DNA of 28,844 nucleotides. It comes from Planctomycetota bacterium. Lineage in GTDB: Bacteria; Planctomycetota; Phycisphaerae; WQYP01. The stretch spans positions 1-28,844 of the forward strand of contig JAJYZY010000011.1 of the NCBI GenBank assembly GCA_021799715.1. The letters are read 5' to 3'. This document shows, piece after piece, positions 3,467 through 8,545 of the stretch. The notes below the pieces were generated by a model. The model ran no database searches, was not told where the DNA came from, and was given only the letters and a program-made list of their open reading frames with translations. Made by a program: the position numbers and the translations under genes. The first letter of the stretch is position 1, and the number at the start of each line of letters is the position of its first letter.

Positions 3467-4576
3467 CTATGGGCTGTCAAATAAATTATGTGCCGGGCAG
3501 AAGCCGCATTGCGAAAAATACGCCATGGCCTCCCCCACGGTGGTAAAAAGATTGGTTGCGGTTTGTGTTACAAACGGGCTGGGCGCGGCTTTGGGCCGCC
3601 AGATGACATATACTTCCCGCGCATGGTCATACGCATGCTGAAGTTCGCGTTCCACACCGCTGGATAAACCGGGACGGCCGTCGTCGAGTTCCGGAATATA
3701 GGATACAATCATATCACTCTGCCGCACCATCATGAAATCGCGGGCGTAAATCTGGCCGTTAATATCGCCCCCAATGGTCAGTATCTCCGGCACCCGCAAC
3801 TGCACGGTCCCGCCGGACGTTTCCACGTTCAATGTTTGGCGGCCTTCCTCCACGGCCAGAACCGCAGCGTCATACAGCATTTTTTCATCCACATCGCCCG
3901 GATCAAATGTGATAAATTTCTCCGCCATGGATCGGCGAAAATCATTGATTTCATTGAGTATATGGGGCAGATTCATGACATGGCTCATGGGAAAACTGGG
4001 ATACACTTTTCGCATTCCCGGCCGCATGAGCAGGCGAAACAGCGTTAAGGCCGTGCTGGCGTGCCGGCCGCGGGCAAGCACAAAAAAAGCCCCCGGATGC
4101 CGGGCGTTGGCGCGGGCCATAAGTTCCGTCGCCAGAATTTCTTCTTCCCGCCAGACCATTAAATCCTTCAGGCTGTGGTCCACATTATGATCCCGCAGCA
4201 GTCTCTGGTGCACCGATTCCACATTGTCCAGCAAGGTGACATAGATATCCGCCTGAAGTTGCGCCAGTTGATCAAAATCAAACGCGGCAAACAGACCATG
4301 TTTCCAGCGGAAAGTGGCATGTGAATTAATAATCACATTGGGATGATTCGGTAATTCGCTGATAATATCGCGGAAAACCGCACGCCGCAGGCTTGTTAAC
4401 CGTGACAGCGGCAAATCCAGAATACGGCCCGGTTTAACATCTGCCGCTTCGCTGTACATCATGTCGCCGACATGAAATACCTTCAGCGGTTCGCCATGCG
4501 CGCGGGCGATTGCTTCTAATTCTTTCAGATAGTCCTGTCGGTCAAGTCCCACCTGGCCGGTTAATAACATTCTCAT
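3467..4576 (-). CDS. Two-domain protein: nucleotide-kinase-like N-terminus, deoxyribosyltransferase-like C-terminus
   Basis: 369 residues, function not assigned. The N-terminal ~190 residues look like a P-loop kinase of the adenylate-kinase type: a beta strand into LLTGQVGLDR, then HVGDMM, then VIINSHATFRWKHG, then an LRD motif. The loop lacks the GK[ST] of a normal Walker A, so ATP binding is uncertain. The second half begins at KVYPSFPMSHV and ends with QSDMIVSYIPE, GLSSGVERELQHA and EVYVIW. This pattern resembles nucleoside 2-deoxyribosyltransferase folds, where a conserved Glu follows a Ser/Gly-rich turn. I chose the ATG at 4576: AAGGAG lies 11 nt upstream and the kinase-like strand starts immediately. 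The in-frame ATG at 4642 would lengthen the protein by 22 residues. It lies 88 nt behind the ketosynthase and is probably cotranscribed with it. The real substrate is unknown. Confidence 0.6.
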   Translation of the reverse strand: MRMLLTGQVGLDRQDYLKELEAIARAHGEPLKVFHVGDMMYSEAADVKPGRILDLPLSRLTSLRRAVFRDIISELPNHPNVIINSHATFRWKHGLFAAFDFDQLAQLQADIYVTLLDNVESVHQRLLRDHNVDHSLKDLMVWREEEILATELMARANARHPGAFFVLARGRHASTALTLFRLLMRPGMRKVYPSFPMSHVMNLPHILNEINDFRRSMAEKFITFDPGDVDEKMLYDAAVLAVEEGRQTLNVETSGGTVQLRVPEILTIGGDINGQIYARDFMMVRQSDMIVSYIPELDDGRPGLSSGVERELQHAYDHAREVYVIWRPKAAPSPFVTQTATNLFTTVGEAMAYFSQCGFCPAHNLFDSP

Positions 4577-4664
4577 GGCGGTGCGTTCTCCTTCAACCGG
4601 GGCATTATAGCCGAAGGCCGCGGTGCGCTTGGGCTTCCACATCTTGTCCGATGCCGTCGGGCGT

Positions 4665-5972
4665 TTACACCGCGAATTTGCGGAGAATCAGCGTATCATT
4701 CTGTCCACCAAAGCCAAAGCTGTTGGACATCGCCACATCCACCTTTATTTTCCGGGCGTTATTGGGGACATAATCCAGGTCGCATTCAGGATCCGGCACG
4801 CTGTAATTGGCCGTGGGCGGAATCATTTGATCCCGTATGCACAACACGCAGGTAATGGCCTCAACAGCGCCGGCAGCCGCAATCAAATGCCCCATCATGC
4901 TCTTGATGCTGCTGATGGGCACCTGCCTGGCGCGTTCCTTAAAGACCCCTTTAATGGCAAAAGTTTCAGTTGAATCATTTTCTTTTGTGCCGGTCCCATG
5001 GGCATTGATATAGTCAATATCCGAGGTTTGCATGCCCGCATCCCGCAGGGCGGATTCAATGGCCACAATGGCCCCACGACCATCAGGGTGTTGATCGGTC
5101 ACGCGATAGGCATCCGCGCTGCTGCCATAGCCGACCACTTCCGCCAGAATCCTGGCTCCGCGGGCTTCGGCGTGTGAAAGGCTTTCCAGAATCAGCACGC
5201 CGGCCCCTTCGCCAATGACAAAACCGCTGCGCGTGGCGTCAAATGGGCGGCATGAGCGTTTCGGATTTTCATTAAACGTGGAAAGGGCGGTCAATCGGTT
5301 AAAGCCGGTGACACCAAAGGGGTGAATCATGGAATGCGCGCCGCCGGAAATCACCACCGCCGCATCACCCCTGCGAATCAGTTCCGCCGCCTCGCCCAGC
5401 GCTTGCGTGGATGCGGCGCACGCGGTCAGACAGTTAATGGCCGGGCCGCGCGCGTCAAATTCCATGCTCAAATGTGAAATGGGCATGGCGGGTTCCTGCT
5501 CAATTTCCCGCAGGGCATGAAACGCTTGCAGCGCCTGTTGGCCCCATTGGGCCATATTCATGCCGCGCGATTCCTGATTCCACGACTCCAGAGCAACCCG
5601 TGTGAAATTGTCAAAATCCAGCGCCGCATCGCCCGTACCCATATATACCGCCACCGAATACGGATCCACCGCCGCGGCTTCTTTTGACCCGGGCTGCGGC
5701 AGCCCCGCCATGTCCCATGCCTGATGCGCCGCATCCAAAGCAAATCCGGTGGCCCGGCTGATTTCTTCGTGTTTTCCGGAAGTCCGCAAATTTTCGGGCA
5801 ATTGATAATTTTTTACTTCCGCCGCGAATTGCGTCGGAAAATAGCGCGCATCAAATAATGTTGTCGGCGCAATACCGCTTTCACCGGCCAGCAATTTCGC
5901 CCACACGTCATCAATGGTTCGGCCCAGGGGGGTAACCCATCCTACGCCCGTTATCACCACACGATTTTTCAT
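4665..5972 (-). CDS. Beta-ketoacyl-ACP synthase (FabF/KS-alpha type), active site intact
   Basis: Decarboxylating Claisen condensation of acyl and malonyl units carried on acyl carrier protein. 435 residues, slightly longer than the ~412 of housekeeping FabF. All catalytic residues are visible: nucleophile Cys185 in TACAAST, His325 in NAHGTGT, Lys357 in SSIKSMMGH and His362. SNSFGFGGQN (416-425) is the C-terminal glycine-rich motif. The ATG at 5972 has GGAG 5 nt upstream. The gene starts 53 nt after an inactive ketosynthase homologue, an arrangement like the KS-alpha/KS-beta pairs of type II polyketide and aryl polyene pathways, though there the active gene often comes first. It could instead be the organism's housekeeping FabF, but the absence of fabD, fabG or acpP nearby and the inactive partner argue for a special role. 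Confidence 0.88.
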   Translation of the reverse strand: MKNRVVITGVGWVTPLGRTIDDVWAKLLAGESGIAPTTLFDARYFPTQFAAEVKNYQLPENLRTSGKHEEISRATGFALDAAHQAWDMAGLPQPGSKEAAAVDPYSVAVYMGTGDAALDFDNFTRVALESWNQESRGMNMAQWGQQALQAFHALREIEQEPAMPISHLSMEFDARGPAINCLTACAASTQALGEAAELIRRGDAAVVISGGAHSMIHPFGVTGFNRLTALSTFNENPKRSCRPFDATRSGFVIGEGAGVLILESLSHAEARGARILAEVVGYGSSADAYRVTDQHPDGRGAIVAIESALRDAGMQTSDIDYINAHGTGTKENDSTETFAIKGVFKERARQVPISSIKSMMGHLIAAAGAVEAITCVLCIRDQMIPPTANYSVPDPECDLDYVPNNARKIKVDVAMSNSFGFGGQNDTLILRKFAV

Positions 5973-6025
5973 ACTTACTCCGTTTGCATCAGGTCTTCAC
6001 CTGGGGAACTGGTTGCATTTATTCT

Positions 6026-7369
6026 TCAGGAATAGCGCCTTAAAACCACCGCCGCATTCTGCCCCGCGATCGAACCGGTGGTCACCAGAACATGCTGCAA
6101 ATGTGCCGCATGCGTCTGCTGCGGCACATTGAGTTCCGCAATGGGAGCGGTACAATTCACGGCTCCGGGAACCATCTGATGCTGCAGCGCCATTGCCGCC
6201 GCCGCCAGGTCCAATGCTTGCGATCCGGCTCCGGCATCACCGATGCCGCCCCGGATCGGCATGACTTCCGGCCGCAAAGTCCCAAATACATGATGAATCG
6301 CCGATGCCTCCGCCCGATCATGGCCGACGATAGCATAACCGCTGGGGATCACCATCTGCACATCCGCGGGGCTTGTATCGGCGTCTTTTAAGGATTTGCT
6401 CATGGCCACCGCCATCGCTTCGCCCGCCGGATCAGGCCCGGCAATTCCGCGGGCGCTGGATGACGCCCCGACACCGGCAACTTCCGCATAAATTTTTCCA
6501 CCCCGCGACAGGGCGTGTTGCAGTTCCTCAATAATCAACACACTGCCACCTTCCGCAATGACCGTTCCACAGGCTGCCTGATCCATGGGCCGACATGCCG
6601 TTGCCGGCTGATGATTTCCCGCCGTGGTGAGTCGCTTCAGCAATGTCCAGCGCATTAATCCCATCGGATGCACCATGGATTCGCACCCGCCAACCAGGGC
6701 AATATCCGCCTGGCCGCGTTGAATGGTGCGGCACGCCTCGGCTAAAGCCAAGCCGGCTGAAGCCTGTTGGCAGGTTATGGTGTTGGACGGTCCCTGTGCG
6801 TCATGAATGATGCTCACATGGCAGGCCAGCATGTTGGGCAGATATTTCAACAGCCACAGCGGCGTAAGCAGGTCCATGCCGCTGGGCTTGGTTGGATCGT
6901 CTGATTTGCCCCATTTTTTTAAACTCAGGGAGCCATCCTCCGCTTTTGCCGGAGCCATTGCGGCAGCCAATTCATTGAGATCAGCGCAAATAAGGCCCGC
7001 GCCGATATTGCACCCGATCCGCCGGGCGTCCACTTCAAACCAGGTGTCGTCGGGTTTCTTTCCGCCAAATGTCTCCATCACACCGCGCGTGGCCAAATGG
7101 GCATCGCGCACGGCTCCGTCCGCCGCCAATACCGCCAGTTCTATATCGCGGGCCATGATTTTTGTGGCTTTACGATAACTCTTTGGGACGTAATCCATGG
7201 TTTTAAACGCCGGTACCTGACCGGCAATTTGGCTGGGAAATGCCACCGGATCAAAGGCCGACAGCGGCGCGATGGCCGATCGCATGTCGGTAAGCCCCTT
7301 CCAAAGTTCGCCGCTGGTTATACCATGCGGGCTGACCGCTCCAACTCCGGTAATGACAACGCGCCGCAT
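6026..7369 (-). CDS. Chain length factor-like (KS-beta) ketosynthase homologue without catalytic residues
   Basis: 447 residues with thiolase fold throughout: RRVVITGVGAVSPHG at the start and GSIAGQNAAVVLRR at the end. Aligned by eye with the neighbouring active enzyme, Gln202 (in TITCQQASAG) stands where the nucleophilic Cys should be. Ser343 (IPSGYA) replaces the first His, Arg373 replaces the Lys and Asp378 (GIGD) replaces the second His. In type II polyketide systems the chain length factor also carries Gln at the nucleophile position and forms a heterodimer with the active ketosynthase, setting chain length. Cys200 lies two positions away and is not in register. The ATG at 7369 has GGAG 5 nt upstream. 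First gene of a probable three-gene operon. The protein could also be a dead paralogue, but the frame is fully open and well preserved. Confidence 0.82.
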   Translation of the reverse strand: MRRVVITGVGAVSPHGITSGELWKGLTDMRSAIAPLSAFDPVAFPSQIAGQVPAFKTMDYVPKSYRKATKIMARDIELAVLAADGAVRDAHLATRGVMETFGGKKPDDTWFEVDARRIGCNIGAGLICADLNELAAAMAPAKAEDGSLSLKKWGKSDDPTKPSGMDLLTPLWLLKYLPNMLACHVSIIHDAQGPSNTITCQQASAGLALAEACRTIQRGQADIALVGGCESMVHPMGLMRWTLLKRLTTAGNHQPATACRPMDQAACGTVIAEGGSVLIIEELQHALSRGGKIYAEVAGVGASSSARGIAGPDPAGEAMAVAMSKSLKDADTSPADVQMVIPSGYAIVGHDRAEASAIHHVFGTLRPEVMPIRGGIGDAGAGSQALDLAAAAMALQHQMVPGAVNCTAPIAELNVPQQTHAAHLQHVLVTTGSIAGQNAAVVLRRYS

Positions 7370-7431
7370 GAAATCTCCGCATTAAGCTACCATCCGCCGC
7401 GTCAGATTATCCCATTGGTGTCTGAACCGGC

Positions 7432-7473
7432 GGAGTTGGAATTCTATGCCGTAATGGCGGCAATTCCAACTCC
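7432..7473. repeat. Perfect 12-bp inverted repeat in the divergent promoter region
   Basis: GGAGTTGGAATT (7432-7443) and AATTCCAACTCC (7462-7473) are exact reverse complements separated by 18 nt. The same GGAGTTGGAATT recurs at 8050-8061 within the pyrK-like gene. The arms coincide with the -35 and -10 hexamers of the minus-strand promoter, so this may be an operator for a dimeric regulator. Confidence 0.75.
7441..7469 (-). promoter_or_regulatory. Candidate promoter of the ketosynthase operon
   Basis: Minus-strand TTGGAA (7464-7469) and TAGAAT (7441-7446) are exactly 17 nt apart, a good sigma-70-like pair, giving a leader of about 65 nt. The hexamers lie within the arms of the 12-bp inverted repeat, so a protein bound there would block transcription. 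Confidence 0.5.
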
Positions 7474-7531
7474 CCGCCGCGTCCGCCAACTCCGCTGGCA
7501 GGCTTTGCCGCTGTGCGTTATGCTTTGGCGG

Positions 7532-8545
7532 ATGACTCATTGCCCGGAATATAACACGGCGGTACCCCGCGACTCCAACCGCAATCGCGGCCAATTCGCC
7601 GCCGCCGTCGTGGCAAACACCAATATTTGCCGTGAACATTTTCTTCTCACACTGCGGGTAGCGGATTTTCCCCCCAGCCGGCCCGGACAGTTTGTGCAGG
7701 TGTTGTGCCCACCACCGGATACCGCGTCCGGCAGGCCCTCTGACCCGGCAGTATCGGCGGAACCGGAAGTTCAAGAATTGCATTGGGAGCCGGGAACGCT
7801 GCCGCCGCGTTTTCATGACCCTTATTTGCTGGAACCCGAACCGTACCTGCGCCGGCCATTTTCCATCGCGGGTCGCCGCGATGATATGGTAAACCATTGC
7901 TGCGACATTGACCTCATCTACCGGGTAATCGGCAAAGCCACCGGGCGAATGGCGACTCTGGCGACCGATGATTGCATATCCATACTTGGGCCTTTGGGCA
8001 ATGAATTTCCGGTACCCGACGCGATGACGACAGCTTTTTTAGTCGGCGGGGGAGTTGGAATTCCGCCGATGATTTATCTGGCGGAGAAGTTTCAGCGCCT
8101 GGGCATTAAGGCAGTGGCTTTTATCGGCGCTCAAAAAGCGGACCTCATTCCGTTGCGCATAACCGGTGACGTTGGCACCAAGCCGACATCCAATGTGCGG
8201 GAATTTGCGGATTTTGAAACCCAAACGGTTGTCGCAACGGATGACGGCTCTCTGGGCAATAAGGGTTTTGTCACGCAGGTGTTGGAGCAATTTTGCACCA
8301 AAAATCCCGATCCTGGAGCGGTGGTGTTCTGCTGTGGGCCAACGCCCATGATGCGGGCCACCGCGTTGGTTGCCGCGCGGCTCAAGTTGCCGTGTTACGC
8401 ATCGCTGGAACAGCCGATGGCCTGTGGCATGGGTACCTGCCAGAGTTGCGTAATTAAATACCGCTCCGTTAATGCGCCGGATTGGGTGTATAAACTCACC
8501 TGCAAAGATGGCCCGGTATTCAACACAACGGATATACTGTGGTAA
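7532..8545 (+). CDS. PyrK-like flavin / 2Fe-2S electron transfer protein
   Basis: Ferredoxin-reductase-like protein of about 337 residues resembling the electron transfer subunit of dihydroorotate dehydrogenase B, which passes electrons from dihydroorotate oxidation to NAD. Visible parts: a beta-barrel with PGQFVQV, the FAD motif RRPFSI, the NAD-binding FLVGGGVGIPPMIYLAE, and a C-terminal 2Fe-2S cluster with Cys298, Cys303, Cys306 and Cys324 (CGMGTCQSC ... YKLTCKDGPVF). An insertion of roughly 35 Pro/Glu-rich residues separates PGQFVQV from RRPFSI, making it longer than typical PyrK (about 260). No PyrD lies beside it. The frame is open back to 7097, but that part overlaps the divergent ketosynthase gene. 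The start is uncertain: 7532 is the last ATG before the first conserved strand and has no clear Shine-Dalgarno. A sulfhydrogenase or glutamate-synthase-type partner is an alternative. Confidence 0.75.
   Translation: MTHCPEYNTAVPRDSNRNRGQFAAAVVANTNICREHFLLTLRVADFPPSRPGQFVQVLCPPPDTASGRPSDPAVSAEPEVQELHWEPGTLPPRFHDPYLLEPEPYLRRPFSIAGRRDDMVNHCCDIDLIYRVIGKATGRMATLATDDCISILGPLGNEFPVPDAMTTAFLVGGGVGIPPMIYLAEKFQRLGIKAVAFIGAQKADLIPLRITGDVGTKPTSNVREFADFETQTVVATDDGSLGNKGFVTQVLEQFCTKNPDPGAVVFCCGPTPMMRATALVAARLKLPCYASLEQPMACGMGTCQSCVIKYRSVNAPDWVYKLTCKDGPVFNTTDILW

What the first reader, a model, noticed from the sequence alone, without database searches (positions are those of the whole stretch)
4665..7369. 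Active ketosynthase paired with a chain length factor-like dead homologue
Seen directly: the downstream gene keeps Cys185, His325, Lys357 and His362. The upstream gene has Gln202, Ser343, Arg373 and Asp378 at those positions yet keeps the full fold and an open frame. In type II polyketide and aryl polyene pathways a KS-alpha pairs with a KS-beta that carries Gln in place of Cys and sets chain length. Inference: this operon makes a heterodimeric condensing enzyme for an unusual polyketide or fatty-acid-derived product. The gene order (dead partner first), the loss of all four catalytic residues, and the lack of adjacent ACP, ketoreductase or dehydratase genes set it apart from known clusters.
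Basis: partly seen in the sequence, partly recalled or inferred. Interest (0 to 1): 0.75.

Follow-up and report, generated by a model that had tools for sequence, protein, structure and literature searches.

The report
Planctomycete paired active/dead ketosynthase genes
These two neighbouring genes look like the working and the non-catalytic half of one chain-building enzyme, part of a five-gene lipid- or polyene-making set kept by nearly all sampled bacteria of one planctomycete class, whose product is still unknown.

Summary
KSb (6026-7369, -) has Gln202/Ser343/Arg373/Asp378 where KSa (4665-5972, -) has Cys185/His325/Lys357/His362, and is under purifying selection (dN/dS 0.06-0.09).

KSb is found in 143 of 150 genomes sampled from the class. 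In 87 loci, 0 KSb keep the nucleophile Cys (E 42, Q 25, D 18, A 2); 83 of 83 KSa do. KSa lies just downstream in 80 of 87.

"No adjacent ACP or dehydratase" is local: 38 of 87 loci read dehydratase-ACP-dehydratase-KSb-KSa; around the window this set is split up.

Outside the class sample, 4 of 18 KSb-type proteins still have Cys; their KSa carries Lys, not Glu/Asp, at acyl-pocket position 108. One tree places these as the first branch of KSb, suggesting one loss of catalysis, separate from known chain length factors (AU support borderline).

Best reading: a heterodimeric, chain-length-factor-like condensing enzyme in a dedicated second elongation module. Heterodimer and product are inferred. 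Cys-less planctomycete FabF paralogues were reported in 2009; I found no report of this cassette.

The parts
6026..7369 (-). KSb: catalytically dead FabF-fold ketosynthase homologue (447 aa; Gln202, Ser343, Arg373, Asp378 at the catalytic positions)
   Evidence: (PF00109/PF02801)
4665..5972 (-). KSa: active-type ketosynthase (435 aa; Cys185, His325, Lys357, His362; Asp at the FabF-108 acyl-pocket position)
5973..6025 (-). 53-bp gap between KSb and KSa, consistent with one operon
   Evidence: coordinates; transcription not tested
3467..4642 (-). downstream gene of 391 aa with an AAA_17 / weak adenylate-kinase-like match, 22 bp after KSa; found beside the pair only in the window and closest relatives (8 of 87 loci), so probably not part of the ancestral set

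Best explanation
KSb and KSa are the two halves of a heterodimeric condensing enzyme that works like a type II PKS ketosynthase/chain-length-factor. KSa carries out the condensation on its Cys-His-His site. KSb contributes structure: its invariant hydrophobic segment (LWLLK.LPN, FabF positions 132-140) is proposed to line or close KSa's acyl pocket across the dimer interface. With a dedicated long ACP and two FabZ-like hotdog dehydratases (next to the pair in many relatives, scattered in the window's clade) it forms a second elongation module beside the housekeeping set, borrowing ketoreductase and possibly enoyl reductase. The dead half probably arose inside this family from a catalytically intact partner. 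The product is proposed to be a long-chain or polyene acyl chain for the cell envelope. Shown: gene set, residues, conservation, co-occurrence. Inferred: dimerisation, interface role, borrowed reductases, history. Speculative: the product.
For: KSb profile match in 143 of 150 class genomes, one match in 141 (in G094 the second match is its KSa). KSa directly downstream on the same strand in 80 of 87 loci. 0 of 87 KSb with Cys; KSa Cys and His at C163/H303 in 83 of 83, Lys and His at K335/H340 in 82 with one truncated. HD1-ACP-HD2-KSb-KSa in that order in 38 of 87 loci; clustering of neighbouring ORFs found no further recurrent gene beyond 7 of 82 loci. In 199 phylum genomes, 29 of 30 with a KSb-profile match also hold the long ACP and 29 of 31 ACP genomes have the match (p about 2e-31, uncorrected for kinship). 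The parts persist after the cluster breaks up: ACP in 12 of 13 and HD2 at full score in 9 of 11 genomes of the window's wider clade. dN/dS 0.06-0.09. Housekeeping FabF over cut-off in 6 of 6 genomes. KSa E/D at 108 in 83 of 83, E134 in 83, E136 in 81; KSb L132, W133, L135, L138 in 87 of 87. Outside the class sample the KSa pocket state goes with the partner's state: E108/E134 with a Cys-less KSb type in 4 of 4 genomes, K108 with a Cys-bearing one in 4 of 4.
Against: No interaction was tested and no heterodimer could be modelled here. Seven of 87 loci lack a KSa directly downstream (4 with none in the stretch, 3 further away). Outside the class sample the family is not uniformly dead: 4 of 18 KSb-type proteins keep Cys, His, Lys and His (G163, G191, G211, G276), so both partners may be active there; and in G217 and G322 the ACP-dehydratase set is followed by KSa alone, with KSb elsewhere in the genome. 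The pocket/partner association rests on two groups of four, each possibly only one or two lineages, so it may be a single event. No genome is held for the window; its ACP and dehydratases are inferred from relatives with 85-89% identical KSb. The interface role of positions 132-140 rests on recalled FabF structures; the papers seen only support Ile108 lying in the acyl pocket. Lys136 also occurs in housekeeping FabF_L012, so a KSb-specific salt bridge is not supported.
Confidence: 0.75

Rival explanations
1. [quoted passage not shown] This refines the best explanation about product, not about the pair.
For: Similar composition and consecutive FabF-like genes in acpXL-fabZXL-fabF2XL-fabF1XL (passages of PMC11901934). 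LpxB is present in all 30 genomes with a KSb-profile match in the phylum sample. [quoted passage not shown]
Against: LpxB is in 187 of 199 genomes, so it does not discriminate. KSb and KSa score far below NCBIfam NF005084 and NF005076 (78.9 of 320 and 337.5 of 629 bits), which I recall, without a call, as models for the rhizobial pair. No acyltransferase recurs next to the set.
Confidence: 0.35
2. The module is a highly reducing type II PKS-like system making a polyene or polyunsaturated chain, in which the acidic residue at KSa position 108 ejects each beta-ketoacyl-ACP so that it is reduced and dehydrated before the next round.
For: E/D at FabF-108 in 83 of 83 KSa against Ile in E. coli FabF and FabF_L012. 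In the ishigamide KS-CLF a charged pocket residue, Asp113, is reported to release beta-ketoacyl-ACP for reduction and dehydration (PMC8358021). Two dehydratases and no reductase recur in the set.
Against: Asp113 of Iga11 was not mapped onto FabF position 108. Active Streptomyces KSs used as references have Val there, and four KSa relatives have Lys instead. Housekeeping enoyl reductase could act on the intermediates.
Confidence: 0.3
3. KSb is a malonyl-ACP decarboxylase of KSQ type that primes the module.
For: Gln in place of Cys in the window's clade (24 of 24 loci), as in KSQ domains (recalled).
Against: Decarboxylation in this fold uses the two catalytic His. Both are present in only 2 of 87 KSb (L092 with Glu, L132 with Asp), none with Gln; the window has neither.
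Confidence: 0.07
4. The dead ketosynthase recruits a pre-formed non-fatty-acid moiety into the pathway, as suggested in 2009 for divergent FabF paralogues of anammox bacteria.
For: Proposed in PMC2649909. The R. baltica NP_866153 pattern there (Glu163, Lys328, Asn333) resembles the common KSb pattern Glu/Lys/Asn.
Against: No gene for such a moiety recurs beside the set; close pairing with an active KS is better explained by a CLF-like partner.
Confidence: 0.08
5. Two independent homodimeric enzymes that merely share an operon.
For: No interaction data. KSb without a KSa in the stretch in L097, L098, L099, L129. In four genomes outside the class sample both neighbours have full catalytic residues, and in G217 and G322 KSa and KSb are not adjacent.
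Against: 80 of 87 loci adjacent and in fixed order; complementary clade-specific changes in the 108 and 132-138 segments of the two proteins, with the KSa state following the KSb state in 8 of 8 genomes outside the class sample.
Confidence: 0.12

Closest known systems
Type II polyketide KS-alpha/KS-beta (chain length factor), e.g. actinorhodin 1tqy
   Same: Active KS plus Cys-less partner encoded side by side; Gln at the nucleophile in the window and in two Streptomyces CLFs; full-length protein.
   Different: Dead partner is encoded first; Glu/Asp is the family norm (60 of 87); the better-sampled tree puts the CLFs with Streptomyces KS-alpha and KSb with KSa (AU borderline); some KSb relatives still have Cys; near-universal in a class sample.
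Cys-less FabF paralogues of Rhodopirellula (Rattray et al. 2009)
   Same: Planctomycete FabF homologues with Asp or Glu for Cys163, the common state in KSb; genomes G234 and G251 carry two such proteins each.
   Different: The passages and results section I read discuss active-site residues and ladderane clusters; I saw no account there of a dehydratase-ACP-dehydratase-KSb-KSa set or of pairing with an active KS.
Rhizobial VLCFA locus acpXL-fabZXL-fabF2XL-fabF1XL
   Same: Dedicated ACP, FabZ and two consecutive FabF-like genes.
   Different: Model scores far below cut-off (model assignment recalled); two dehydratases here; ACP of about 130 aa with an insert; no recurrent acyltransferase or alcohol dehydrogenase. 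Whether FabF2XL is dead was not tested.
Aryl polyene ApeO-ApeC
   Same: KS-CLF heterodimer with ACPs and a two-protein dehydratase (PMC8358021).
   Different: The CLF there is about half-size (240 aa in L046), KSb is full length. A separate APE-like set with a 258-aa partial KS exists in relative G004, with matching KS hits in all six of G001-G006.
Ishigamide-type highly reducing KS-CLF (Iga11-Iga12, 6kxd)
   Same: Charged residue in the acyl cavity of the active KS, KS/CLF logic, separate dehydratase.
   Different: Position equivalence not mapped; 6kxd_A scores 215 bits to KSa against 332 for the best FabF.

Membership tests
Type II PKS chain length factor (KS-beta) | Gln replacing the nucleophilic Cys in a KS-fold protein | tested here: met
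   Gln202 in the window; but Gln in 25 of 87 family members only
Type II PKS chain length factor (KS-beta) | encoded next to an active KS | tested here: met
   80 of 87 loci
Type II PKS chain length factor (KS-beta) | common descent with known CLFs | tested here: inconclusive
   grouped with CLFs (97/92, long branches); apart from them (KSa+KSb 100/97, CLF+Streptomyces KS-alpha 98/87); AU against KSb+CLF p 0.031, dead KSb+CLF p 0.065
Type II PKS chain length factor (KS-beta) | forms a heterodimer and sets chain length | not testable with these tools
   no complex prediction or assay available
FabF equivalog TIGR03150 | score above curated cut-off 493.75 bits | tested here: not met
   KSa 462.8, KSb 241.6; housekeeping FabF 597-605 in G001-G006
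Aryl polyene CLF (ApeC) | half-size CLF with one thiolase half | tested here: not met
   KSb is 447 aa and aligns along its whole length to FabF structures; E. coli APE CLF is 240 aa
Rhizobial FabF2XL/FabF1XL (NF005084/NF005076, assignment recalled) | score above curated cut-off | tested here: not met
   78.9 of 320 and 337.5 of 629 bits
Cispentacin AmcF | NF058662 cut-off 325 bits | tested here: not met
   KSa 235.7, KSb 106.9
Dedicated FAS II / type II PKS module | own ACP and dehydratase in the gene cluster | tested here: met
   38 of 87 loci carry HD1-ACP-HD2 upstream; FabA-like and PP-binding domains. Not met at the window itself
Dedicated FAS II / type II PKS module | own ketoreductase in the cluster | tested here: not met
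   no recurrent reductase in 82 loci

The most novel reading that the evidence does not exclude
A planctomycete class keeps, as core metabolism rather than as an optional secondary pathway, a type II PKS-like synthase whose dead partner evolved independently of known chain length factors: from an ancestral pair in which both ketosynthases were active (still present in some relatives) one subunit lost catalysis while the pocket of the other changed from basic to acidic. It makes an undescribed polyene or very-long-chain acyl lipid of the planctomycete envelope.
Probability: 0.35. Interest if true: 0.75.

Novelty: new variant of a known kind. Interest (0 to 1): 0.55.

Why it matters
KS/chain-length-factor pairs are known mainly from sporadic natural-product clusters (recalled). 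Here a pair of that design is near-universal in a class sample, with its own ACP and two dehydratases, and the gene set persists where the cluster has broken up. That points to an undescribed core lipid. Relatives with an intact Cys in the partner make the origin of a pseudo-enzyme subunit testable step by step. One contig of the sample has the same length (3,868,357 bp) as the contig of a protein labelled Limihaloglobus sulfuriphilus and carries the complete five-gene set (L092), so a named species is likely available for finding the product.

Tried and rejected
Rejected: KSb as a pseudogene (open frame, dN/dS 0.06-0.09). Cys200 as nucleophile. The pair as the only elongating ketosynthase (standard FabF over cut-off in 6 of 6 genomes). 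The kinase-like gene as part of the core set (8 of 87 loci). A KSb-specific salt bridge through Lys136 (same Lys in FabF_L012). My own earlier wording that the partner is dead in every member: true of the 87 loci read, not of 4 of 18 KSb-type proteins from elsewhere in the phylum (made while checking this report).

Led nowhere: LpxB co-occurrence (187 of 199). Mapping Asp113 of Iga11 onto FabF position 108 (searches did not bring up a closer relative of 6kxd). Rooting KSb in the first tree (the third AU test did not finish and was not rerun). Literature searches for a described planctomycete KS pair or gene set: 0 papers; 0 papers; these cover open-licence PMC papers only. Fold lists show FabF, the actinorhodin KS-alpha chain and the ishigamide KS; absence of other chains there is not evidence.

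Full report

WHERE IT COMES FROM. A scan of the species-genome collection with KSb gave six loci at 85-89% identity, all metagenome bins labelled Planctomycetota or Phycisphaerales, and one 24% match in an acidobacterium. KSb, KSa and the 391-aa gene are together in all six (in L003 the third gene is cut by the contig end). No genome is held for the window, so its genome-wide content is inferred from relatives.

HOW WIDESPREAD. With a 36-row KSb profile (A1) I searched 150 genomes of the class of relative G001: 143 have a match at E<=1e-80, 141 of them one match. Of the two with a second match, G094's second is its KSa (273 bits) and G076's was not examined. The tool does not name the class; I take it to be Phycisphaerae, since wherever an organism is given among the 120 rows listed it is Phycisphaerae, Phycisphaerales, Planctomycetes/Planctomycetota or Limihaloglobus sulfuriphilus, and the last is in Phycisphaerae. 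Most rows carry no organism. In 199 genomes of the phylum, 30 have a match at the same threshold; weaker homologues would be missed.

CONSERVED GENE SET. I read the neighbourhoods of 87 loci: the window, L001-L006 and 80 stretches. Together they cover 85 of the 143 class genomes with a match, plus G004 and the window; the other 58 were not fetched. KSa lies directly downstream of KSb on the same strand in 80 of 87; in three it is further away (L100, L132, L150) and in four none was found in the stretch (L097, L098, L099, L129). Upstream of KSb, 46 of 87 have hotdog protein HD2, 39 an ACP and 38 hotdog HD1; all 38 complete sets have the order HD1-ACP-HD2-KSb-KSa. Some stretches end at a contig end, so these are lower bounds. 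Clustering neighbouring ORFs of 82 loci returned, on the same strand, the KS family (82 loci), the hotdogs (46) and the ACP (39); two more same-strand groups (20 and 14 loci) lie at the positions of the KS genes, and the rest occur in at most 7 loci. HD1 and HD2 are FabA/FabZ-type (PF07977; 71-103 bits to FabZ models, below the cut-offs) and the ACP is about 130 aa with a PP-binding domain and an insert.

THE WINDOW'S CLADE HAS A BROKEN-UP CLUSTER. Of 24 loci with KSb above 700 bits, only L080 has HD1, ACP and HD2 next to the pair; of the other 63 loci, 37 have. In the clade the parts are elsewhere: the long ACP in 12 of 13 genomes tested at E<=8e-44 (G020 has only a housekeeping-level match), and HD2 at more than 230 bits in 9 of 11 (none in G004; a fragment at a contig end in G005). 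In L173-L176, L178 and L180 HD2 sits beside a gene whose protein begins like glyceraldehyde-3-phosphate dehydrogenase (my reading; no family search was run). A hotdog match lies next to the ACP at a third place (L206, L209, L210; elsewhere by the coordinates).

CO-OCCURRENCE. In the same 199 phylum genomes the ACP is found at E<=3e-40 in 31 (four more at 1e-15 to 3e-18 were left out of the count). Twenty-nine of the 30 KSb-match genomes have it (not G019) and 29 of the 31 have the KSb match (not G052, G266); hypergeometric p about 2e-31 without correction for relatedness. Six of the seven class genomes without a KSb match still have the ACP (not G120).

RESIDUES IN THE CLASS. At the four FabF catalytic positions KSb shows: C163 = E 42, Q 25, D 18, A 2 of 87; H303 = F 21, H 18, P 16 and others; K335 = K 48, R 28 and others; H340 = N 39, D 25, H 4 and others. 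KSa shows Cys and His at C163 and H303 in 83 of 83, and Lys and His at K335 and H340 in 82, with one truncated. Gln marks the window's clade (24 of 24, plus L094). KSa has E/D at position 108 (83 of 83), E134 (83), E136 (81) and Q137 (83); KSb has L108 (86 of 87), L132, W133, L135, K136, L138, P139 and N140 (87 of 87) and R201 (86). Ile108 lies in the FabF acyl pocket and helps control access to it (passages of PMC4606726 and PMC5206705). Recalled FabF structures place the 130-140 segment at the dimer interface near the partner's pocket; this was not mapped here. The simplest reading is that KSa's pocket is completed by KSb's hydrophobic segment, while KSa's own segment, now acidic, faces the dead site. 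K136 also occurs in FabF_L012, so I claim no specific salt bridge.

OUTSIDE THE CLASS SAMPLE. While checking this report I fetched 20 stretches from 16 phylum-sample genomes that were not in the class sample; these were chosen from the KSb matches, not all of which were fetched. They hold 18 KSb-type proteins, recognised by W133 (18 of 18) and, where present, by position. The nucleophile is D in 6, E in 5, C in 4, N in 2 and S in 1. The four with Cys (G163, G191, G211, G276) keep all four catalytic residues; they sit in a full HD1-ACP-HD2-KS-KS array, and their profile scores were ambiguous (higher to KSa than to KSb). The eight KSa-type proteins all have intact catalytic residues. Four have E108/E134 and come from genomes with a Cys-less KSb type (G181, G204, G217, G322); four have K108 with Arg or Asn at 134 and come from the four genomes with the Cys-bearing partner. 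In G217 and G322 the array reads HD1-ACP-HD2-KSa and KSb lies elsewhere. G234 and G251 have two Cys-less KSb types each.

ORIGIN. In a first tree (70 rows) KSb (29 rows) and KSa (25 rows) are each one side of a branch at 100/100 and 100/99, apart from FabF; KSb joined two Streptomyces CLFs and a further Streptomyces KS at 97/92 with long branches meeting, and AU tests rejected neither KSb+KSa (p 0.122) nor KSb+FabF (p 0.112). In a second tree with the phylum rows (59 rows) KSa and KSb families form one group apart from FabF and CLFs (100/97); the Cys-bearing proteins are the first branch on the KSb side (97/92), the Cys-less ones form one group (100/99), the K108 KSa are the first branch on the KSa side, and the CLFs go with Streptomyces KS-alphas (98/87). 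AU for KSb+CLF is 0.031 and for dead KSb+CLF 0.065. So a duplication, followed by one loss of catalysis in KSb apart from the known CLFs, is favoured but not proven.

HOW IT PROBABLY WORKS. Shown: an active and a dead KS kept together in the class; a gene set of two dehydratases, an ACP and the pair; a separate FabF over the equivalog cut-off in 6 of 6 genomes, next to an ACP gene and a short-chain-reductase-like gene in the two loci I looked at (L009, L012). Inferred: KSa/KSb heterodimer, ketoreductase from the housekeeping set. Open: the product. The composition recalls the rhizobial very-long-chain fatty acid locus, although model scores exclude membership if the recalled model assignment is right. 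The acid at KSa position 108 recalls the ishigamide synthase, where Asp113 is said to release beta-ketoacyl-ACP (PMC8358021, introduction and cavity section); equivalence of the positions was not established.

PRIOR KNOWLEDGE. Cys-less FabF paralogues of Rhodopirellula baltica (Asp, Glu) and divergent ones of Kuenenia were tabulated in 2009, and import of non-fatty-acid moieties was suggested for the Kuenenia ones (PMC2649909, passages and section 9 read). I saw no description of the five-gene set in the ten literature searches made, which cover open-licence PMC papers only.

Noticed in passing
L250, L253, L256, L265 (G163, G191, G211, G276): HD1-ACP-HD2-KS-KS arrays in which both ketosynthases keep all catalytic residues and the second has Lys at FabF position 108: a possible living intermediate of the pair.
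   Followed up: partly
L039 7654-11655 (G004:C58): An aryl-polyene-like set in a relative of the window: ACP, acyltransferase, two small proteins without Pfam match, a 371-aa KS with intact catalytic residues and a 258-aa partial KS.
   Followed up: partly
L038 8844-12328 (G004:C31): A further KS set: FAD-dependent halogenase-like oxidoreductase, full KS with intact catalytic residues and a 296-aa protein with no Pfam match.
   Followed up: partly
window 3467-4642 (-): 391-aa protein with a weak adenylate-kinase/AAA_17 N-terminal match, beside the pair only in the window, L001-L006 and L104; its C-terminal part has no assigned domain.
   Followed up: partly
L240 2171-11254 and L249 1446-10792: Streptomyces plasmid clusters with the order FabD-ACP-reductase-dehydratase-KS-dehydratase-KS-long KS protein-KASIII-like; in L240 the second KS has Ala for the catalytic Cys, a separate dead-partner arrangement.
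   Followed up: partly
L260, L261 (G234) and L263, L264 (G251): Two different Cys-less KSb-type proteins per genome at separate places, like the two Rhodopirellula paralogues reported in 2009.
   Followed up: partly
G076:C39:34139-35434 and C68:1410-2705: A class genome with two strong KSb-profile matches (454 and 438 bits).
   Followed up: no
L097, L098, L099: Divergent KSb with Glu for Cys, His303 kept and Glu at H340, without KSa in the fetched stretch.
   Followed up: no
window 7097-8545 (+): Gene divergent from KSb with a dihydroorotate dehydrogenase electron-transfer-subunit-like C-terminal part (NAD-binding and Fe-S domains); the ORF as called overlaps KSb on the other strand and the true start is unsettled.
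   Followed up: no
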